From positions 1 to 40,759 of IMG/VR virus record IMGVR_UViG_3300042935_000644: a stretch of 40,759 nucleotides of DNA. One strand, 5' to 3'. The notes under the pieces were generated by a model. The model was not told the DNA's origin. It searched no databases and saw nothing but the letters and a program-made list of their open reading frames with translations. Position numbers and translations under genes: made by a program. The first letter of the stretch is position 1; the number at the start of each line of letters is the position of its first letter. Shown one piece after another: positions 6,596 through 31,080 of the stretch. The stretch is from a virus.

Positions 6596-8032
6596 TCAAG
6601 TGTCTTCAGACAAATCTAGGACATCTTGGTACATGGTGTTGGCTTGCTGGGGATTTAAGCCACCACTAGCCAATTGCCTAGACACATCACCAGCATTTTG
6701 CCCAAACAAGCGACTGAGTACGCCACTGCTACCTCTGGCTTCTACTTCCAAGCGAACCATGTCCCTAGTGTCACTTATGTCCTTGAACTTTTCAACAAGG
6801 TTAAACAGACGCTCCACTTCTCCTGAAAGTGCTGGGTCAAGACCCTGTCCTTCTAGTTCTTCAGCAAAGCGAGCGAAGAGTACACGACTTACTTGCATCT
6901 CCAATAATGCCCTCAATGCTGCCTGTAACTGATCCTTAGTTTTGATCTCTACAGGTAACTTAAATCCACACTCAGAATCTTGTCGGAATGCAGGACAACG
7001 TGCGCTGAGATAGCAACTATTGCATTGGCGCAAAAGTCCACTTTTATACGAGATTACAGGAACCTTTTCAACACCTAAACTTTCAATATCTTCTTCACCA
7101 GCAAGGGTTTTAGCCAATTGTGGGGTGAATTGTTCAATACCTATGACAGGTAGCAATACTTTGTCATCTTCGTGCCGCATCTCAGCACCCCGGATAGCAA
7201 TAGTTGACCCCCTCGGTGCCACATTTGGAACAGAAGCAGGATTGCTCGGATAGTTGATATCCGTGACACTTTCCGATAGACCAATTTCTTGCTCATCGTC
7301 CATTTCTTGAGGCTCATAGACCCCAAAAACAACCTTTTCCCACGCTTGCCAAGAAACAATTGCAAGCCTCGCAACCTCAGAGTTGTCATCCTGAATGATT
7401 GCATCGTAGTCAATCCCTAACTTAAGGATGTCTGCTCGGTGCTTCTTTCGGGACGAATCCTTTTGTTGGGCGGGGTATCGGCGTAAGCCATGACCGTCCC
7501 AAATCTGAGTTTCCCCATACCTAACTGCTGATGTCCATGAGCCAACAATTACCGAATCCCACGGCAACGCTGCAATAACATCGGGCTTAGAAGATAAGCC
7601 TATTAACTTGGCATCCCAACGCTGAATCAAGTTTCTAATGCGAGAAATGGTCTTACCATTTACTGCCTTGTCACTAATTGCTGCCCTTCCATGCTTTTGG
7701 CAAAGCCAAGCAAGGCGTTCCATATCATTAGGGTCATTCCATACAGGGATGTACCGCTCCCCCAGCCAAGTACCGTCATAATCGGGTCTCCCAATGACCA
7801 TTGCAATGTTTTCGTAGTGCTGGCGCACGAAATCGTCGTATCTACTGACATCCTCATCATTTTCAGATGTGTACAGAATGATCTCTCCCGATGGGAACAT
7901 TACAGACAAATCCAATTCCTTTTTCTTAGGAATGGGCAGGTGAGTAAGGTTTACAGCGTACTTCGTAACTCCCGATGCCTGTAATAACGACCTATGGGAT
8001 GCCTTTTCAGCATTGGCAAAATATACCTTCAC
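6596..8032 (-). CDS. Large phage protein with C-terminal Cys4 cluster, function unknown
   Basis: A 478-residue protein with a GTG start coupled to the upstream stop (GTGA). The first ~240 residues look like an alternating alpha/beta, possibly TIM-barrel, domain (opens MKVYFANAEKASH; strands such as YDAIIQDD and PWDSVIVGSW), loosely recalling tRNA-guanine-transglycosylase-like (DpdA) proteins. A linker follows. Residues 337-355 hold C-x2-C-x5-C-x8-C (CNSCYLSARC, then SEC), consistent with zinc or an Fe-S cluster, then a long helical domain (about 365-450). I recall similar two-part proteins in actinophages without known function. It is next to a possible HAD-fold gene. The transglycosylase idea is weak because the catalytic residues cannot be assigned. 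Confidence 0.7.
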   Translation of the reverse strand: MKVYFANAEKASHRSLLQASGVTKYAVNLTHLPIPKKKELDLSVMFPSGEIILYTSENDEDVSRYDDFVRQHYENIAMVIGRPDYDGTWLGERYIPVWNDPNDMERLAWLCQKHGRAAISDKAVNGKTISRIRNLIQRWDAKLIGLSSKPDVIAALPWDSVIVGSWTSAVRYGETQIWDGHGLRRYPAQQKDSSRKKHRADILKLGIDYDAIIQDDNSEVARLAIVSWQAWEKVVFGVYEPQEMDDEQEIGLSESVTDINYPSNPASVPNVAPRGSTIAIRGAEMRHEDDKVLLPVIGIEQFTPQLAKTLAGEEDIESLGVEKVPVISYKSGLLRQCNSCYLSARCPAFRQDSECGFKLPVEIKTKDQLQAALRALLEMQVSRVLFARFAEELEGQGLDPALSGEVERLFNLVEKFKDISDTRDMVRLEVEARGSSGVLSRLFGQNAGDVSRQLASGGLNPQQANTMYQDVLDLSEDT

Positions 8033-24217: not shown

Positions 24218-25762
24218 TTATACCTCCTTATGTCGTAGGAACTCTGAAAGAGCGCCTAAGTTTAATTGAAAACTTCCCTTGTTATCGTAACCACCATCAA
24301 TAAATGCTTTATTGATTCCTCGTTTTTCCTGCAACATTTCGTATTGCCTCTCTTCAATGCTACCTTTCATAACGAAGGAGACCACATTAACGTGTGGAAA
24401 CTCAGATGACAACCTAATGATTCTGGCTTCTCGTTGGTCTAGTTTGCCAGCACTCCATGGAAGGTCATAGGAGATAAGGTAATTGGCAATTGGTAGGTCA
24501 ACACCATAGCCACCTGCATCTGAGGAAAGAAATAGCCTGGTGTTTGGGTCGGTGGAAAACTCTTGTTTAGCCTTATCCCTATCCATCATGTCCATACCCC
24601 CCATAAATAGAACACTACGGGTGGTTGCTTTAGTTGCTTCTTGAATAAGGCGCAAATTGTTTTTAAAGAAAGAAAACAAAACAACTTTGTTCTTAGGATT
24701 TTCTTCTAAGACATCTGTAATGTACTGAACTACTGCATCAAGTTTAGGAGTATTAAAGTTATCTTGGATCAACCCTTGTGCTACTACTTGTGAAGCATGC
24801 TTGCTGCCTTGAGTGTTGCCGTCATCTAGGTACATTTCTGCAGACAACTTTACAAGCGCTGGGTTGTCACAGAACATACGTAGAGTAGTTAGGCGAGACA
24901 TAATATCTCCCTGTGCTTCCATGTTTTTATTGTTGCCGTAGTAATGGGCCCATAAATCAAAACCACGACCATGCTCAGTCATTGCTTTTTGAATAGCAGT
25001 CAATAGGTCTTCTGCTAACCTTCGGTAGGTTACTGCACCAAAGGAATCAAAAGGAACTGGAACTACTTGCTGAATTACTACAGGTAATTGGTCAGCAATA
25101 TCCTCACGAGTTTTACGGATCATTACATTTTCCATGCTGGTGTGTAATGACTTTAAATTTCTGTACCGTTTTGGTTTACCAAAGTGGTCACGCTCAATGA
25201 ATGTCCTGTCAAACACTTCAAACTTTCCAAGGATAGTTGGGTCAACAAACTCCATAATGGAGAACAACTCTTCTGGACGGTTCTCAATTGGTTGACCTGT
25301 TAGGGCAAACCTATAGTGGTATTTCTTTCCAAGGCGTTTGATTAGCCGTGAGCGCTTTGCTCTTGGGGTCTTAATCATGGTTGCTTCATCTACAACAATT
25401 GCATCAAACTTATGCTTTTCGTAGGAAGCAATGTCATTGGCAAGAGACTCAGGGTTGACAATAACGTACTGAGCACTTATGGCTGTTCTCCATAGTTTCT
25501 TCCTTGCAGCAATACCACCGTCAATAACAACACACGATGAGTCTGTAAACTTCTCAATCTCTCGTTTCCATTGGTACTTCAAAGAAGACGGTACGACAAT
25601 AAGTGTTTTACAAACCTCACCCATCACTTGCAAGTTTTCAATAGTTGCAATCGTAGTGATAGTCTTACCAGCACCCATCACAAGGGCCAAGAGCATTTGA
25701 CCACGGTCAACCATCTGTTCCGTGGCTTCTTCTTGAAAGGGGTATAACTTGCCCTTAAACAT
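24218..25762 (-). CDS. SNF2-like DNA helicase/translocase
   Basis: A 514-residue helicase. Motif I is VMGAGKT (28-34), motif II is VVDEAT (123-128), and motif III-like is ALTGQPIENRPEE. The second RecA domain ends with SSDAGGYGVDLPIANYLI and QREARIIRLS, where the final arginines match motif VI. This fits Swi2/Snf2 proteins such as phage-encoded UvsW-like or SNF2 translocases that remodel forks or protein-DNA complexes. An ATG start with a GGTGG site is preferred over a TTG one codon upstream. It overlaps the primase stop by 8 bases. Confidence 0.9.
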   Translation of the reverse strand: MFKGKLYPFQEEATEQMVDRGQMLLALVMGAGKTITTIATIENLQVMGEVCKTLIVVPSSLKYQWKREIEKFTDSSCVVIDGGIAARKKLWRTAISAQYVIVNPESLANDIASYEKHKFDAIVVDEATMIKTPRAKRSRLIKRLGKKYHYRFALTGQPIENRPEELFSIMEFVDPTILGKFEVFDRTFIERDHFGKPKRYRNLKSLHTSMENVMIRKTREDIADQLPVVIQQVVPVPFDSFGAVTYRRLAEDLLTAIQKAMTEHGRGFDLWAHYYGNNKNMEAQGDIMSRLTTLRMFCDNPALVKLSAEMYLDDGNTQGSKHASQVVAQGLIQDNFNTPKLDAVVQYITDVLEENPKNKVVLFSFFKNNLRLIQEATKATTRSVLFMGGMDMMDRDKAKQEFSTDPNTRLFLSSDAGGYGVDLPIANYLISYDLPWSAGKLDQREARIIRLSSEFPHVNVVSFVMKGSIEERQYEMLQEKRGINKAFIDGGYDNKGSFQLNLGALSEFLRHKEV

Positions 25763-26675
25763 CAAGCCACCAGGGGAATACTGAGGCTTGGCTAACTGCT
25801 GTAATTATTTGTGCGTGTGTCATTTCACCGATATCTTTTGCGTCCGTGTGTGCGTAGTGTAACCAGTTTACACCATGCCTGAATGCAGGTAACGCTTTTT
25901 GTAGTTTTTGGGCTGCAGAAATACCAGCAGAATCATTATCTAAAGCAATAATTAAACCGTCAAAGTGCTCTACAAGTAACCGTATCTGTTGTTTACTGAT
26001 GTGAGCACCATAGGAAGCGACACCACACACCCCAGAAACTACCGTAGCCAAACGTGCTGCATCCAAAGGTGACTCTACAAGTACACCAATCGTGCAATCT
26101 GCCTTATCAATACCAAACAATGTTTCAGACTTCTTTACACCGATGGGATAGTTACGAACCTGTGATGGTTGTTTTTCTTGCCAACCCAACAACTCCCCCA
26201 TAGGTGACACGATAGGTAAAATCCAAGCCTGCTTACCTTCATCAAACCTAATGCCATATTTTCGTGCCGAATCTCGGTCAATGCCCCGTGTGAACAACCA
26301 CTCGTCTGAAGGTGCGGGGAAAGAACTAAAAGACTTCCAATCAACTGTTGGCTTCTTTTCAAGGGGTGCAGTTGAGTTGAGCCTTTCTAAACCCTTAGCC
26401 ACAATAAAGGAGTGCACAGCAACAATAGAGTCAGACTCCCCAGTCAACTCAGAAACAAGTGAGGACAATGTCCCCTTAGCGCCACAGGAATAGCACAACC
26501 ATAAACCTGTGTGGGCATTCATAGACCACGAGGGTGATGCATCCTCCTTACCAACACGATTAAAGTGCACTGGGCAACGTGCAGAAATTTCGTTCTCACC
26601 GATACGCCGAACGTCCACACCTAAGTGCTGTAGCACATGTGCTACGTCAGTAATACCAGTTGTCTCGGTCATCAT
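25755..26675 (-). CDS. DNA primase (CHC2 zinc finger plus TOPRIM)
   Basis: A 306-residue primase. The zinc finger is C34-x2-H37 and C61-x2-C64 (ARCPVH; LWLCYSCGAKG). The TOPRIM domain has E201 in VLVESPLDAA and D246-x-D248 in IIALDNDSAG, the metal-binding residues. The C-terminal helicase domain of T7-type fusions is absent because a separate DnaB is encoded immediately upstream. It makes RNA primers on the lagging strand. Start at MMTETTG (26675; MTETTG at 26672 is equally possible), overlapping the helicase by 29 bases. Confidence 0.9.
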   Translation of the reverse strand: MMTETTGITDVAHVLQHLGVDVRRIGENEISARCPVHFNRVGKEDASPSWSMNAHTGLWLCYSCGAKGTLSSLVSELTGESDSIVAVHSFIVAKGLERLNSTAPLEKKPTVDWKSFSSFPAPSDEWLFTRGIDRDSARKYGIRFDEGKQAWILPIVSPMGELLGWQEKQPSQVRNYPIGVKKSETLFGIDKADCTIGVLVESPLDAARLATVVSGVCGVASYGAHISKQQIRLLVEHFDGLIIALDNDSAGISAAQKLQKALPAFRHGVNWLHYAHTDAKDIGEMTHAQIITAVSQASVFPWWLDV

Positions 26676-27912
26676 CTTTATCATCCCCTTCTTCTCCCAC
26701 TTCTGTAAAGTCCATGTTTGCCCAATCCCAGTTGATCCTAATTTCGCCAAGTGGTGCTGAACGAGCAAGGACGACACGAATGATTCCCTGATTCTCAATG
26801 TCAGGGTCAGACTCAACAGCAAGCACAAGGTCGGAGTCTTGGGCAAATGAAGAGGTGTAGCCAATAGAGTCTGCGGTTACCCTCCTGGACTTCTTGTTAC
26901 CCAACTTCCAAGACAAGACTTGAGTAGTACCTACAACAGGAATATCTTGGTTTTGGGCAAGGCGCTTTAATGCACGGGTGATATTGGTGAGCGCCTGTGG
27001 ACTACCTTTGGGCTCTCCTTGCTCATCGTCCATCAAGTACACACCGTCAATAAACAGAATGTCAGGTTGGTATTCCCGTACCTTTGCCGTAAGTGCGCTA
27101 ACGGTCGTAACAGATGCGGTGTCCTCGGTAATTACAAAAGGATGCATGTTCTTACGCATACGCAAGGTTTCACGAACCTTTTCAAACTCTTGGTCAGATA
27201 ATGACGCACGCAGAATATTGCTATATGGAACCTTAGCAACAATTGCGTCATAACGTGCTGCTTGCTCTTCGGCTGACATTTCAAAAGATACAAACAGTGG
27301 GCGCTTACCATGAATGTGTGCAGCATTAGCCATCATCAAAGTCATCAACGACTTACCCTTTTTGGCCTCACCAACAAAAGTAATCAACTGCTGAGGGCGG
27401 AGACCAGAAGTAATCCTGTCAAGACCTTGGATACCCGTAGGGATTCCACGAATAGCATTTGGCATTTTACGAAGTTCATCGTATTTGTCAACACGCTCTT
27501 CCCAAGTCTCAATTAAGTTGACATCTCGCAAGCGAGCAACATCAGCCCCAGCCTTCTGAACACCAGCCGCTAATATTTTAAATGCTTCAGTGGTATCCCC
27601 ACTTTGGATGGAAGGCATTGCCGCAGACATCGCTTCAACCAAGTTGCGATGGCGATATGTCGCATAGATTTCTGTAACAAGTGCGCTAAACGGTTCACCT
27701 TTAGCATCAAGAAACTTAATATCACCAAACTCTTGCTTGATAGCACGGGTGGTCGGAACCTCACCATGCTCCCTCCAAAAAGAAACCAACCATTCCCAAA
27801 CAATTGCCCACTCGGAAGTAAAGTGATGTGCTTTAACCCCATGCTTCATGGAGTACGAAAGGTCTTGCTCCTGAACTACTTTGCTAATTAATAGTTGTTC
27901 TGCACTAGCCAT
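26647..27912 (-). CDS. dnaB: DnaB-like replicative helicase
   Basis: A 421-residue helicase. A helical N-terminal domain (about 1-100) is followed by the RecA-like motor: GIPTGIQGLDRITSGL (156-171) leads to Walker A GEAKKGKS (181-188), then FVSFEMS with the catalytic E211, and Walker B ILFIDGVYL. This is a typical phage DnaB with a ring motor that unwinds the fork 5' to 3' on the lagging strand. The start ATG shares a base with the upstream stop (TGATG). It is loaded by the DnaC-like protein encoded at 28345-28986. Confidence 0.93.
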   Translation of the reverse strand: MASAEQLLISKVVQEQDLSYSMKHGVKAHHFTSEWAIVWEWLVSFWREHGEVPTTRAIKQEFGDIKFLDAKGEPFSALVTEIYATYRHRNLVEAMSAAMPSIQSGDTTEAFKILAAGVQKAGADVARLRDVNLIETWEERVDKYDELRKMPNAIRGIPTGIQGLDRITSGLRPQQLITFVGEAKKGKSLMTLMMANAAHIHGKRPLFVSFEMSAEEQAARYDAIVAKVPYSNILRASLSDQEFEKVRETLRMRKNMHPFVITEDTASVTTVSALTAKVREYQPDILFIDGVYLMDDEQGEPKGSPQALTNITRALKRLAQNQDIPVVGTTQVLSWKLGNKKSRRVTADSIGYTSSFAQDSDLVLAVESDPDIENQGIIRVVLARSAPLGEIRINWDWANMDFTEVGEEGDDKDDDRDNWYY

Positions 27913-28355
27913 CAGAGAGACCATGCGGTGTTCGTAGACACCACGGTTGCACGCATACCAATCACCTTCGCCTGTTCTTGATCTGCTGTGTATATCTTTG
28001 TAATACCCCTATTGAATTGCAATTCAAAAGCAAGGTCATTAATGTTATCAAATGAAACCACGTTCGTAGATATTCCCTTCTTTAATAGCCACCTGTCTAC
28101 TGCTTCCGCAAAGCCAGGGGGGAGCAGTGTATACACCTCCGTACCAACACCCAACCTGTGGATTGAATCACTTAGATGTTTAACAGGCAGTGTGTTTGTC
28201 TGCCACATCTTAAGATACGCATCCCACTTTTCACTTTTTAATAAATAACTAGCCTTAATTTTTTCAAGTTTTCCTGTTGGCTCAGAGGCAAGCACTCCCT
28301 CAAACATTGTTGCCTGCACACGAGGAGCATAGGAAGCAAGATCATTACCCTGCAT
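27912..28355 (-). CDS. Hypothetical protein between helicase loader and helicase
   Basis: A 147-residue protein; the ATG (MQGNDLASYAPRVQ) lies inside the loader's final codons. A possible degenerate HAD-like or Rossmann core is suggested by strand segments TEVYTLLPP, TNVVSFD and TKIYTAD spaced by helices, but the catalytic D-x-D is missing. It could be a replication accessory factor. A later start (MFEGVLASEP) is possible. Its coupling with DnaB (TGATG) suggests matched expression. Confidence 0.68.
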   Translation of the reverse strand: MQGNDLASYAPRVQATMFEGVLASEPTGKLEKIKASYLLKSEKWDAYLKMWQTNTLPVKHLSDSIHRLGVGTEVYTLLPPGFAEAVDRWLLKKGISTNVVSFDNINDLAFELQFNRGITKIYTADQEQAKVIGMRATVVSTNTAWSL

Positions 28356-28986
28356 GTTGTGTGACTCGGTAATCCTTTCCTTCAAACGGAATCTGTAATG
28401 TAGCATCTTGCAAAATAGATGCAAGTCGTGGGCCGTAATTAACGCCGATAGAAGCAATACTCATTTCAGAGGTAACAATCGTAATCAACTTCTGTTCGTA
28501 TCGGCTATTGAGCAAAGAAGAAACAGCGTTCTTAGTAAAGTCTGTTTTCTTCTCCCCACCAAGACCGTCTAGAACAACAATGTCAAAGACTGAGTTGATG
28601 TACTTCAGCAAGTACGGGTCACCATACTCGTCAGGGAGTTCCCCGTCAGAACGCAGTTCATCGTAGGTTGCCGCAATAAACTTCTCAGCGGTGATAAAGA
28701 AACCACCCAACTGATGCTTGTGTAACAACTCAGAAAGAAGCGCTGCTGCTAAATGGGTCTTCCCTGTTCCTGTAGCACCACAGAAATATAAACCTTCGCC
28801 GCTCTCTAGGTTTTCTTTGATGTTGGATGCCCATCCACGAATGGCTTGGGTAACACCCCAACTACCAACCTCATCATCGTAAGAGTCAATCGTTTTATCT
28901 AGGTACCTTTTTGGAATGTGAGCATTACTTACCCGCTCTTTTGGTGAACGGTTTCGCCAGTATCGTGGTCCATGCCAATCAGTCAT
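28345..28986 (-). CDS. DnaC-like AAA+ helicase loader
   Basis: A 213-residue ATPase. Walker A is GATGTGKTHLA (70-80) and Walker B is IVVLDGLG (136-143, D140). The following FTKNAVSSLLNSRYEQKL and TIVTSEMS correspond to the sensor region of DnaC/IstB proteins. It loads the DnaB ring on DNA opened by the initiator (lambda P is a functional analogue). The start MTDWHG is chosen for the GGAGAAG site; it overlaps the upstream stop. Immediate neighbours are the helicase and the initiator module. Confidence 0.9.
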   Translation of the reverse strand: MTDWHGPRYWRNRSPKERVSNAHIPKRYLDKTIDSYDDEVGSWGVTQAIRGWASNIKENLESGEGLYFCGATGTGKTHLAAALLSELLHKHQLGGFFITAEKFIAATYDELRSDGELPDEYGDPYLLKYINSVFDIVVLDGLGGEKKTDFTKNAVSSLLNSRYEQKLITIVTSEMSIASIGVNYGPRLASILQDATLQIPFEGKDYRVTQHAG

Positions 28987-29398
28987 GTAGGTACTTCTCC
29001 AATCGTGGGTCAAACTTAACCTGCTCAGAATCTACGGGAAGAATATCGGAAGTAATCCGTTTAAACAACCCTCCACGGCGACGAACAAATGCGAGCCAAG
29101 GAACTTCTTGATTTGTTAATGGCGTGCGCTTAATGTCTTCTGCAAACAAATCAATCATGCGGTAGATCTGATCAGTTGTTACCGATTTAGATAACATCTC
29201 TTTAAAAACCTTCATCAGAGCAGGTCCGTTTACAGGGGCGTTCAGCGTCATGTTTGTACTTGTAGTGACATCACGAAAATAACGCAGTACGTGGGTCAGT
29301 CCCGTTTTGTTCTTACTAGGGACAACTTGTGTGGGTTCATCCGCTCCTATCGGAGTGACATCCCAATCATCATTTTTCTTTTGGCGTGTAATGGGCAA
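28979..29398 (-). CDS. Hypothetical replication-region protein
   Basis: A 139-residue protein. The N-terminal 35 residues are polar and disordered (MPITRQKKNDDWDV). The rest is helical (ALMKVFKEMLSKSVTTDQIY; RMIDLFAEDIK), somewhat like the DnaD-type domains used by initiators, but this is not demonstrated. It lies between initiator and loader and is coupled to both sides by overlaps, so it may bridge them. Confidence 0.7.
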   Translation of the reverse strand: MPITRQKKNDDWDVTPIGADEPTQVVPSKNKTGLTHVLRYFRDVTTSTNMTLNAPVNGPALMKVFKEMLSKSVTTDQIYRMIDLFAEDIKRTPLTNQEVPWLAFVRRRGGLFKRITSDILPVDSEQVKFDPRLEKYLHD

Positions 29399-29519
29399 CC
29401 CTCACTTTTTTACCATCGGCTACGGGTTCCTCTGACAGTTCCCTGCCTTTAACTGTCCTGCCTTTTTCATCTAGGACTTGGACCTCGTGGTCCCACATCC
29501 ATTTCATAGTTCGTTTCAT
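29370..29519 (-). CDS. Small hypothetical protein
   Basis: A 49-residue protein starting MKRTMKWMWDHEVQVL, after an AGAAAGG site; a longer in-frame start would overlap the initiator gene. It ends in a basic strand (KKVRVAHYTPKEK) overlapping the next gene by 29 bases. Its function is unknown. Confidence 0.6.
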   Translation of the reverse strand: MKRTMKWMWDHEVQVLDEKGRTVKGRELSEEPVADGKKVRVAHYTPKEK

Positions 29520-29530
29520 AAATAACCTTT

Positions 29531-30037
29531 CTATTGGGGAGTTTTTAACTGACGTTGCCATCTAGGGTCTGACAAGAATAAAGCATCTTTCTTTTTCCTT
29601 TTCTGCTTCCCCTCTAGGTTAAGATTAATCTCTCTAGATTGGGTGTCAGCAGTGACACCCTCCGAGGGTGTCCCCAGTGACACCCCGCTAGTGTCACCAG
29701 TGACACTACTAATGGTGTCTCCAGTGACACTACTCCGAGTAATTGGGTTGTTGAAATCAACCCGATAAAGGTTTGTCATGTTCCTACCCGTCCTACTCTT
29801 TCGGACAGTCTTGATAACCGCCCCAGATGCTTCAATGCGGTTCATTGCCCGAATAACAGTCCTGCGGTCATAACCTGTTAGTTCTGCTAGGTGATCGTAG
29901 GACGTAGTGATTTCTTGCCGATCACCACTCATGTAGGTCAGGGCGTGGATTAGTACACACAGAGCCACCGCATCTTGACCTAGGTATTCCAAGACCCATC
30001 GTGGTACTGGTATGAATTGCCCATTTAACTTCGCCAT
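29531..30037 (-). CDS. Replication initiator-like winged-helix protein (lambda O analogue)
   Basis: A 168-residue protein. Residues about 8-95 form a winged-helix domain of the RepA/phage O-N type: VPRWVLEYLG, then the helix-turn-helix LAELTGYDRRTVIRAMNRIE (50-69) and a wing with RTGRNMTNLYRVDF. Residues 103-132 are an imperfect Ser-Val-Thr-Gly-Asp-Thr repeat because that DNA holds four iterons. The C-terminus is basic (GKQKRKKKDA). Such initiators bind iterons inside their own gene, then recruit the loader and helicase. The loader and helicase are encoded just downstream, as in lambda O-P. Confidence 0.82.
   Translation of the reverse strand: MAKLNGQFIPVPRWVLEYLGQDAVALCVLIHALTYMSGDRQEITTSYDHLAELTGYDRRTVIRAMNRIEASGAVIKTVRKSRTGRNMTNLYRVDFNNPITRSSVTGDTISSVTGDTSGVSLGTPSEGVTADTQSREINLNLEGKQKRKKKDALFLSDPRWQRQLKTPQ
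29571..29642. other. AT-rich, purine-skewed tract beside the iterons (candidate unwinding region)
   Basis: Directly next to the iterons, on the 3' side of the initiator gene, the minus strand is rich in A and G (runs such as GAAAAGGAAAAAGAAAG) and the plus strand in T and C. Lambda has an AT-rich, strand-skewed region in the same relative position, where the origin first opens. This is inferred from composition and position only; the tract is also coding (residues about 133-156 of the initiator). Confidence 0.5.
29643..29730. repeat. Four palindromic iterons, candidate replication origin
   Basis: Four copies of a 16-bp sequence GTGTC-N-S-CAGTGACAC lie at 29643-29658, 29668-29683, 29691-29706 and 29715-29730, starting 25, 23 and 24 bases apart. 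The third copy is a perfect palindrome with 7-bp arms (GTGTCAC-CA-GTGACAC); the other three keep the GTGACAC arm exactly and differ at one or two bases elsewhere. They sit inside the initiator gene. The repeat unit, spacing and location match lambda-type origins, where the initiator binds iterons within its own gene. Confidence 0.82.
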
Positions 30038-30184
30038 ATTTGCTTCCTTCTATTTGTCATGTTATAGTTCTTGTACGGGGTTCCCCTTCGCCCCCAGCCT
30101 TGCCTGCGTTTACGCAGGTGGATATGGCGCTTGTGGTAAGGGTGCTGGTGATTTCCCCTTCTTTGATCCAGCACCCCCCACGAG
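30038..30184 (-). promoter_or_regulatory. GC-rich intergenic region with two hairpins and a possible promoter
   Basis: 147 bases without a gene, unusual in this compact genome. A perfect 9-bp stem GGGTGCTGG (30140-30148) pairs with CCAGCACCC (30168-30176). CCTGCG (30103-30108) pairs with CGCAGG (30113-30118) around a 4-base loop. Neither has a T tract on the minus strand, so these are not ordinary terminators. TATAAC on the minus strand (30061-30066) could be a -10 element for the initiator operon, without a good -35. The rest shows no signal. Confidence 0.45.
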
Positions 30185-30802
30185 TTAATTCAAGAGGTTC
30201 TGTAAGGTTTTGATAGGTATGGCTCTTGCTTCCATAGAACCATCCACAAAGGTAACCACCAGTTGGACCATTGAGATCAGCCCTAAGTCCTCCTCAGAGA
30301 AAAGGGGTACTGGGATACCCAAATCCCTTTTGAGCGCATCCTGGGGGCTCCTAGGGGCCTCTACGGGCTCGTTAGCGTTGGGCTCATCGTCAGTTACCCA
30401 GATAGGCACCAAACCATTAGTCAAGTCCTGCAGCATCATCCCAAGCCTGTCTCCCTCAAAGATAATACTTTGGGTCATTTGGGTAGGGTTTTCTTGTTCG
30501 TCTGCGTCAAACAGTACAAGGATATGGGCTTTAGAGTTGATCTTCAGGGTGTCCAAGATCAAATCGTCTACTGCTATGACATTGGTAGCCGCTTGCATAA
30601 TGGTGGGGTGCACCCTGCCCGAAGCAAAGTAAACAGTAAAGTCCGCACCGTAGTCCACTAACCAATCCAATACCCGTGCTTGACCAGCAGTGGGCCTACC
30701 CGACCACATGTAGTGGAACTTTGCACCCTCTTTGACATCTCCCAAACCCGCTTCAATTACGTTTGCTGGAGCATTCCCCGTACCACCAATAATGTATTCC
30801 AT
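30185..30802 (-). CDS. Hypothetical protein
   Basis: A 205-residue acidic protein starting MEYIIGGTGNAPANVI after an AGGAAAC site. The first 130 residues alternate strands and helices in a Rossmann-like manner (ADFTVYFASGR; AHILVLFDADEQ). A Pro/Glu-rich linker follows (NANEPVEAPRSP), then a small C-terminal beta-rich part. It sits between tail genes and the replication block. No family is recognised. Confidence 0.72.
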   Translation of the reverse strand: MEYIIGGTGNAPANVIEAGLGDVKEGAKFHYMWSGRPTAGQARVLDWLVDYGADFTVYFASGRVHPTIMQAATNVIAVDDLILDTLKINSKAHILVLFDADEQENPTQMTQSIIFEGDRLGMMLQDLTNGLVPIWVTDDEPNANEPVEAPRSPQDALKRDLGIPVPLFSEEDLGLISMVQLVVTFVDGSMEARAIPIKTLQNLLN

Positions 30803-30825
30803 GTTGTTTCCTGTTCTTGGTATTG

Positions 30826-31080
30826 TTATTTGACTACTCGCCTACTTAACATGTCCCCTAAGAGGGTGAGTAAGCGTAGCAGAGAGTGTACTGTTCCTGC
30901 AAGGCTGGCTACTGCTAATCCTGTAATCCAACGATCAGGGAAATGTAAGATAAAAGTAGAGCCATAAGCCAAGACCACACCAAACAAAACTTTAACCCAA
31001 GGCATTGCTTCACGTGGGGAAAGTGCGTCTGCAATTTGAACCAGTTTGTATACGGCTAATGCACAAATTAAGTAATTCAT
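30826..31080 (-). CDS. Small multi-span membrane protein, possible holin
   Basis: An 84-residue protein with three hydrophobic stretches (about 1-17, 33-52 and 58-77) separated by short charged loops, ending in basic SRRVVK. The start shares a base with the upstream tail gene stop (TGATG) and has GGAAAG ahead. Size and topology fit a holin, and it follows the tail genes, but no lysin gene is adjacent, so this is only a guess. Confidence 0.62.
   Translation of the reverse strand: MNYLICALAVYKLVQIADALSPREAMPWVKVLFGVVLAYGSTFILHFPDRWITGLAVASLAGTVHSLLRLLTLLGDMLSRRVVK

What the first reader, a model, noticed from the sequence alone, without database searches (positions are those of the whole stretch)
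29571..30037. Lambda-O-like origin buried in a phage initiator gene
Seen: four 16-bp copies of GTGTCNSCAGTGACAC at 23-25 bp steps (29643-29730), one a perfect palindrome, followed on the 3' side of the gene by an AT-rich, A/G-skewed tract. The host gene encodes a winged-helix protein, and a DnaC-like loader and DnaB lie just downstream. Known: lambda O carries its own iterons and an adjacent AT-rich opening region, and O-P recruit DnaB. Inference: this is the phage replication origin, and the iterons shape the odd Ser-Val-Thr-Gly-Asp-Thr repeat in the protein. Such an architecture in a contractile, AT-rich actinophage appears unusual.
Basis: partly seen in the sequence, partly recalled or inferred. 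Interest (0 to 1): 0.85.

Follow-up and report, generated by a model that had tools for sequence, protein, structure and literature searches.

The report
Phage replication origin inside initiator gene
Four near-identical DNA boxes inside a phage's replication-starter gene are kept in every relative examined even where the protein changes, so they are very probably the phage's replication origin, as in phage lambda, and a conserved opposite-strand RNA appears to sit beside them.

Summary
The four repeats are real and beyond chance. In 48 of 48 distinct homologous genes (36-100% protein identity, collected by protein similarity) there is one array of four GTGWC-N6-GWCAC boxes (178 of 192 copies exact). 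Copies are read in different frames, synonymous change is almost absent in them, and the encoded linker varies freely. The N6 cores change in concert within an array. So selection is on DNA. The gene is an O-like winged-helix initiator followed by a DnaC-like loader, DnaB and primase; the 60 nt behind the boxes are AT- and purine-rich. I judge it a lambda-O-type in-gene origin: a known kind, in an uncultured phage group. Binding and origin activity are inferred. GC skew gives no support (monotone; nearly all genes on one strand). The 'perfect palindrome' is not perfect; an actinobacterial host is unproven.

Unexpected: on the opposite strand just upstream of the gene lie a conserved extended -10 promoter motif and a covarying hairpin RNA (no Rfam match), placed like lambda's pO/oop; transcription is not shown. 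The O gene of E. coli phage mEp010 carries the same half-sites with N5 spacing and offers a laboratory test.

The parts
29531..30037 (-). O-like winged-helix initiator gene, 168 aa
   Evidence: PHROG 270 E 3.3e-12, PHROG 391 E 9.6e-9, PHROG 678 E 4.1e-8; AlphaFold model
29643..29658 (+). iteron 4 in gene order: GTGTCAGCAGTGACAC
29668..29683 (+). iteron 3 in gene order, read in another frame than the others: GTGTCCCCAGTGACAC
29691..29706 (+). iteron 2 in gene order, most symmetric copy: GTGTCACCAGTGACAC
29715..29730 (+). iteron 1 in gene order: GTGTCTCCAGTGACAC
29583..29642 (-). AT/purine-rich tract behind the array (candidate opening region), low synonymous change
   Evidence: 62% AT, 72% purine; codons 134-145 synonymous difference 8 of 100
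28345..29013 (-). DnaC-like helicase loader
   Evidence: PHROG 50 E 1.5e-34
26647..27924 (-). DnaB-like replicative helicase
   Evidence: PHROG 19 E 2.8e-61
25755..26864 (-). DNA primase
   Evidence: PHROG 47 E 3.3e-42
30040..30068 (+). candidate opposed promoter TTGCTT-N17-TATAGT with extended -10 (TGTTATAGT at 30060-30068)
   Evidence: TGNTANNNT at this place in 44 of 48 genes; strict sigma-70 scan does not list it
30075..30185 (+). candidate opposite-strand RNA with three hairpins (30077-30094, 30097-30128, 30129-30185); ends inferred

Best explanation
The segment is the replication origin of the phage, embedded in the gene of its own initiator, in the manner of phage lambda's O gene. Proposed working: dimers of the winged-helix protein bind each GTGWC-N6-GWCAC box (four per array, 22-30 bp apart); the complex helps to open the adjacent AT/purine-rich tract on the 3' side of the gene; the short C-terminal tail, or the DnaC-like loader, brings in the phage's own DnaB and primase encoded just downstream. 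Shown: number, spacing, reading frames and DNA-level conservation of the boxes, the O-like winged-helix identity, the neighbouring loader, helicase and primase, the AT/purine bias. Inferred: that this protein binds the boxes, that the tract melts, and that replication starts here.
For: Initiators were collected by protein similarity; all 63 of 63 DnaB loci with at least 2.8 kb upstream have the gene, the other 12 of 75 are cut short. 48 of 48 distinct genes carry one array of four boxes; 178 of 192 copies exact, 8 with one and 6 with two mismatches. Reading frames of the copies follow four patterns over 19 clusters. Synonymous codon differences: array 4 of 246 same-residue pairs (0.016) against 316 of 902 (0.350) before it; second clade 43 of 644 (0.067) against 880 of 2459 (0.358); 0 of 10000 column permutations as low; amino-acid divergence is higher in the array, 0.180 against 0.067 and 0.233 against 0.090. 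The constraint runs on into the 12 codons behind the array: 8 of 100, 41 of 292, 0 of 242 in three clades, the last bin including the final array codon. N6 cores agree within arrays, 0.703 against 0.480 when copies are swapped between clusters, 0 of 5000. The 60 nt behind the array average 66% AT and 69% purine over 19 clusters, against 55% and 53% before it. O-like profiles. Asn at residue 57 goes with T at core position 1 in 48 of 48 copies, against 15 of 144 otherwise.
Against: No GC-skew inflection. No read depth, footprint or replication assay. The residue-57 link was picked by eye afterwards and rests on 2 independent changes (sign test p 0.5). Synonymous change is also reduced, less strongly, to the end of the gene (0.14-0.28 in most bins behind the array) and in codons 2-13 of the window's clade (0.133), so low change alone does not mark the tract. 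The C-terminal tail is short. The AT excess is moderate. The array folds well as RNA (z -5.40) and box positions 6/11 covary as pairs (111 observed, 79.6 expected of 192), as a hairpin would also predict.
Confidence: 0.82

Rival explanations
1. The boxes are an operator: the initiator binds its own gene to shut off transcription of the operon, and the origin lies elsewhere.
For: Symmetric 16-bp boxes with a 6-bp core suit a dimeric winged-helix repressor; a CRP-like HTH is among the weak Pfam matches.
Against: The array lies about 300 nt inside the gene and not at a promoter; four copies in all 48 genes; reduced synonymous change runs on into the AT-rich tract; loader and helicase follow. An operator role in addition is possible.
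Confidence: 0.08
2. The palindromes act as hairpins in the mRNA (or as cruciforms), for example as a translation or processing signal.
For: The array folds well as RNA, z -5.40; positions 6/11 covary; neighbouring copies can pair.
Against: Arm positions 4/13 vary without regard to pairing (122 of 192 complementary, 124.7 expected; A-A 53, T-T 13); conservation is of the half-site GTGWC.
Confidence: 0.05
3. The repeat is kept for the protein: a repeated Ser/Val-Thr-Gly-Asp-Thr linker.
For: The motif is visible in the protein of the window's clade.
Against: Copies are read in different frames, amino-acid change is higher in the array than elsewhere, and synonymous change is nearly absent.
Confidence: 0.01
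4. The boxes are a partition (centromere) site or another phage DNA signal such as a packaging site.
For: Iteron-like arrays also serve plasmid partition; TubR is among the fold matches.
Against: No partition ATPase or tubulin was recognised among the 30 window ORFs scanned with PHROGs (other ORFs not scanned); the gene matches initiator profiles.
Confidence: 0.04

Closest known systems
Phage lambda O protein and its origin (also Stx phages P27, 933W)
   Same: Origin inside the initiator gene; four iterons in lambda, O proteins as dimers; AT-rich tract beside the iterons (PMC7466680, passages); an opposed promoter pO in the replication region (PMC3985674, passages)
   Different: Other iteron sequence (recalled); DnaC-like loader instead of P; the phage's own DnaB and primase; short C-terminal tail; no binding shown. 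Lambda O itself was not compared here
Escherichia phage mEp010 protein O (PP180001)
   Same: Four GTGWC-N5-GWCAC boxes at steps 23, 22, 23 in the O gene, followed by 60 nt of 67% AT: the same half-site
   Different: 15-bp boxes (N5), longer O protein; reached through another O-like gene (L147); role of the boxes untested
Streptomyces phage BRock group (Borockvirus)
   Same: Top-listed cultured phages for DnaB (32%) and DNA polymerase (35%), among the best for the baseplate protein (28-29%); DnaC, DnaB, primase, helicase in the same order
   Different: No initiator homologue found among phage records (one search lists 4 weak hits, no Streptomyces phage) and no iteron array in the 2.5 kb around the loader
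Lambda oop RNA / pO promoter
   Same: Short opposite-strand unit directly upstream of the initiator gene
   Different: Three hairpins, no Rfam match; oop pairs with cII mRNA, target here unknown

Membership tests
lambda-O-type in-gene origin | several dyad iterons inside the initiator's own gene, between DNA-binding domain and C-terminus | tested here: met
   (48 of 48 genes, one array of four)
lambda-O-type in-gene origin | AT-rich tract adjacent to the iterons on the 3' side of the gene | tested here: met
   mean 66% AT behind the array against 55% before, 19 clusters; range 50-77%, so moderate
lambda-O-type in-gene origin | initiator with a DNA-binding domain of the O-like families | tested here: met
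   PHROG 391 and 678, O-like; winged helix in the model. Lambda O itself not compared
lambda-O-type in-gene origin | C-terminal domain that recruits the helicase loader | tested here: inconclusive
   short tail with one predicted helix 158-165 at low confidence
lambda-O-type in-gene origin | helicase loader encoded downstream | tested here: met
   DnaC-like loader, then DnaB; relation to lambda P not tested
lambda-O-type in-gene origin | initiator dimers bind the iterons and replication starts there | not testable with these tools
   needs footprint and origin assay
pO/oop-like opposed transcript | promoter opposed to the initiator gene, directly upstream of it | tested here: inconclusive
   TGNTANNNT in 44 of 48 genes, 34 of 48 with TTG 16-18 nt before it; strict promoter scan found none; transcription not testable
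known RNA family (Rfam 15) | match to a curated family | tested here: not met
   none in the window at gathering score, none in 29500-30400 at E up to 1

The most novel reading that the evidence does not exclude
A large group of uncultured phages carries the whole lambda type of origin control without lambda's sequences: an iteron origin inside the initiator gene plus an opposed pO-like promoter that makes a new three-hairpin RNA, whose CU-rich loops resemble the anti-Shine-Dalgarno end of 16S rRNA (recalled). This RNA, or the act of transcribing it, would set how much initiator is made or how the origin is transcribed. In addition the GTGWC half-site would be a recognition code shared by several O-like initiator families, including that of E. 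coli phage mEp010, and read in part by residue 57 of the recognition helix.
Probability: 0.5. Interest if true: 0.75.

Novelty: new variant of a known kind. Interest (0 to 1): 0.6.

Why it matters
It is an unusually clear natural experiment on a lambda-type origin: DNA and protein constraint can be told apart because copies lie in different reading frames, and the concerted core changes offer a way to read the initiator's recognition code. It predicts the origin of a phage group with no cultured member found here. It also points to a conserved opposite-strand RNA beside the initiator, at the place of lambda's pO/oop, whose part in lambda replication has long been argued (PMC3985674, passages). 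E. coli phage mEp010 makes the shared half-site testable in an ordinary laboratory strain.

Tried and rejected
GC skew as an origin test: monotone in the window and mostly so in the 97-kb relative. Nearly all long ORFs lie on one strand, so the test cannot decide.

RNA-hairpin reading of the iterons: positions 4/13 are independent, positions 6/11 are coupled; not excluded by folding alone.

Opposite-strand promoter: the strict sigma-70 scan found none in 29400-30900; the looser pattern TTGNNN-N16..18-TGNTANNNT occurs 9 times in the whole window, so a single instance is not rare; the motif was noticed in alignments first and counted afterwards. L081 lacks the box at the start codon called there. 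No intrinsic terminator was found on that strand, so the 3' end is unknown.

Structured RNA: MAFFT misaligned the stems between clades. I used the 14-sequence alignment A5, in effect two clades and L032, and a stem search by script. The search was guided by the loop motif and penalised other mismatches. The motif-free search preferred another hairpin in 9 of 29 distinct sequences (3 of these lack H1), and in several its score was matched by some of 20 shuffles (for example L100 13, L103 4). In one search the number of further pair types was below the shuffles (18 against 20.6; 497 of 500 as high), and pairs with two-sided change were not exceptional (68 of 500). No covariance model was built.

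Host: the genome-contig scan with DnaB gave one distant hit (Dehalococcoidia MAG, 24%). The initiator has only 4 weak matches among phage records. For the baseplate protein most matching records are cyanophages (158 of 248 Synechococcus), though Streptomyces phages are among the best.

Fold search: many winged-helix proteins with similar Z of 7-9, DnaD N-domain 2v79 and 4pql among them; none stands out.

Other O-like genes: Decurro and Toulouse have one box each, Pseudomonas phage U7 none, with other repeats; so the half-site is not universal. Of the 38 loci with tandem boxes outside this family, 10 enclosing ORFs were sent to PHROGs: 5 matched initiator families, 2 families of unknown function, 3 nothing.

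Literature: searches listed no paper that I recognised from title or abstract start as describing this origin or RNA (0 papers for actinophage + origin of replication + iterons). Most subscription papers are not held, so this does not show absence from print. Passages only were read of PMC7466680, PMC3985674 and PMC12197685.

Full report
OBSERVATION. Four exact copies of GTGTCNSCAGTGACAC stand at 29643, 29668, 29691 and 29715, steps 25, 23 and 24. At up to 3 mismatches the window has 11 matches against 1.79 +/- 1.26 in shuffles; at up to 2 there is none outside the array. They lie inside the minus-strand ORF 29531-30037. The 'perfect palindrome' is nearly so: 7-bp arms and a mismatched central pair.

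GENE AND NEIGHBOURS. The 168-aa product matches PHROG 270 (replication initiation protein, E 3.3e-12) and the O-like PHROGs 391 and 678; its Pfam helix-turn-helix matches are below the curated cut-offs. An AlphaFold model from 29 relatives (mean pLDDT 66.5) gives a winged helix to about residue 100, a stretch 101-152 under pLDDT 50 that the array and the tract behind it encode, and a short helix 158-165. Fold searches list many winged helices with similar scores. Downstream on the same strand come a DnaC-like loader, DnaB, primase and a helicase, then a DNA polymerase and a UvsX-like recombinase. A baseplate wedge protein supports a contractile tail. The best cultured matches for DnaB and polymerase are Streptomyces phages of the BRock group (32%, 35%), which are also among the best for the baseplate protein (28-29%), where most matching records are cyanophages. 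This hints at an actinobacterial host but does not prove one; a genome scan found none.

COMPARATIVE TEST. Relatives were fetched with the initiator (11 loci), the loader (20) and DnaB (75), not with the repeats; one of the six peptide patterns (DTQSREIN) touches the end of the array. All 63 of 63 DnaB loci with at least 2.8 kb upstream hold an initiator; the other 12 are cut short. Together the loci give 48 distinct gene sequences, 36-100% identical to the window protein. Each of the 48 has one array of four boxes GTGWC-N6-GWCAC; of 192 copies 178 are exact, 8 have one and 6 two mismatches, and eight genes have in addition stray two-mismatch sites outside the array. Five spacing schemes occur (24/23/25, 30/23/25, 22/24/24, 24/22/24, 26/22/24), and the frames of the copies follow four patterns over 19 clusters at 85% identity. 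In five of the six genes of the window's clade (L039 left out) synonymous codons differ in 4 of 246 same-residue pairs in the array, 316 of 902 before it, 54 of 294 behind it; in a second clade (8 genes) in 43 of 644, 880 of 2459 and 131 of 707. Amino-acid change is higher in the array (0.180 against 0.067; 0.233 against 0.090). None of 10000 permutations of codon columns was as low, in either clade. In 12-codon bins the suppression is strongest over the array and the bin behind it (8 of 100, 41 of 292, 0 of 242 in three clades; the last includes the final array codon). It is weaker but still present to the end of the gene, and codons 2-13 of the window's clade are also low (0.133). So the constraint on the boxes is on DNA. 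That it reaches the adjacent tract fits an origin better than a bare operator, without proving it.

WHO BINDS? The N6 core differs between lineages but is shared within an array (0.703 against 0.480 when copies are exchanged between clusters, 0 of 5000). Asn at residue 57, at the start of the recognition helix, goes with T at the first core base in 48 of 48 copies (12 genes); Asp or Gly goes with A in 70 of 76; Ser is mixed. I chose this residue by eye. On a tree made without residues 56-59 both traits change twice, together, which is only a hint (p 0.5). Symmetry counts are mixed: positions 4/13 are independent (122 of 192 paired, 124.7 expected), 6/11 are coupled (111, 79.6 expected). I read this as two half-sites bound by a symmetric dimer.

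WIDER SETTING. Of 116 loci analysed, some from contigs already in the set of 48, 78 have the boxes in an ORF matching the initiator profile and 71 with a profile of the winged helix alone (60 at E up to 1e-5). The pattern with reversed arms hit none. Ten ORFs of the other 38 were sent to PHROGs: 5 matched initiator families, 5 did not. In 19 longer contigs the listed exact boxes form no second array; the list was cut. Escherichia phage mEp010 has four GTGWC-N5-GWCAC boxes at steps 23, 22, 23 in its O gene, followed by 67% AT. Not every O-like gene has this half-site (Decurro, Toulouse, U7).

AN UNEXPECTED NEIGHBOUR. Between the initiator and the gene before it (30038-30184) lies a structured element. 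In 14 sequences 19 predicted pairs of the plus strand are 97.7% formed (shuffled 80.1%, slid versions 44-55%), the covariation score is 0.591 against 0.277 (0 of 500) and 54 cells change on both sides against 22.4 (0 of 500); pairs with two-sided change (11; 68 of 500) and further pair types (18; 497 of 500) are not exceptional, and the structure was derived from the same alignment. The main hairpin was found in 45 of 48 loci; its 24 distinct stems hold 254 Watson-Crick pairs, 36 A.C and 4 G.T on the gene strand. A.C there is G.U on the other strand, so the structured strand is probably the plus strand, opposite to the genes. The folds agree: z -4.94 on plus and -2.65 on minus in the window, -5.69 and -4.66 in L051, -5.09 and -4.05 in L060 (opposite strand first). 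An extended -10 motif TGNTANNNT on that strand stands near the initiator start in 44 of 48 genes (background 0.048 per 80 nt), in 34 with TTG 16-18 nt before it; the strict promoter scan lists none. In 62 ORFs of the pattern scan, some repeating the 48, the hairpin is present in 35, all 35 with the motif; of the 27 others 3 have the motif (split counted from its listing). L094, L077 and L090 lack both. The window's form of the hairpin is single-copy in the window and in the 97-kb contig. Rfam has no match. The place is that of lambda's pO promoter and oop RNA; pO activity bears on lambda replication while oop RNA itself seems of little importance for it (PMC3985674, passages). An effect of the CU-rich loops on translation is a guess.

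VERDICT. The array is very probably a lambda-O-type in-gene origin (0.82): a known kind, here in a large uncultured group and with clean evidence of selection on DNA. The opposite-strand RNA is the more novel part and is not yet shown to be transcribed.

Noticed in passing
window 30040-30185, + strand: Conserved opposite-strand promoter motif and hairpin RNA directly upstream of the initiator gene, no Rfam match; hairpin and motif are present or absent together in nearly all genes looked at.
   Followed up: yes
L237:1001-1993 (Escherichia phage mEp010 protein O): Four GTGWC-N5-GWCAC boxes at steps 23, 22, 23 with an AT-rich tract behind them: the same half-site in a cultured E. coli phage.
   Followed up: partly
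L112:853-2103 and similar ORFs in L114, L124, L130, L132, L143, L144, L191: A 417-440-aa initiator-like gene with eight GTGWC/GWCAC boxes (up to one mismatch, L112) and 73% AT behind them; no match among phage records.
   Followed up: partly
G013:C1:65606, G023:C1:946, G027:C1:47726: A solitary GTGTCGGTTGCGACAC recurs away from the initiator in several contigs, perhaps a conserved coding stretch or a second site.
   Followed up: no
L094 upstream of 4050: L094, L077 and L090 lack the opposite-strand RNA; L094 has TTGCAA-N18-TATAAT on the gene strand before the initiator.
   Followed up: partly
window 6596-8032, - strand: Queuine tRNA-ribosyltransferase-like gene (PHROG 887, E 5.6e-34).
   Followed up: no
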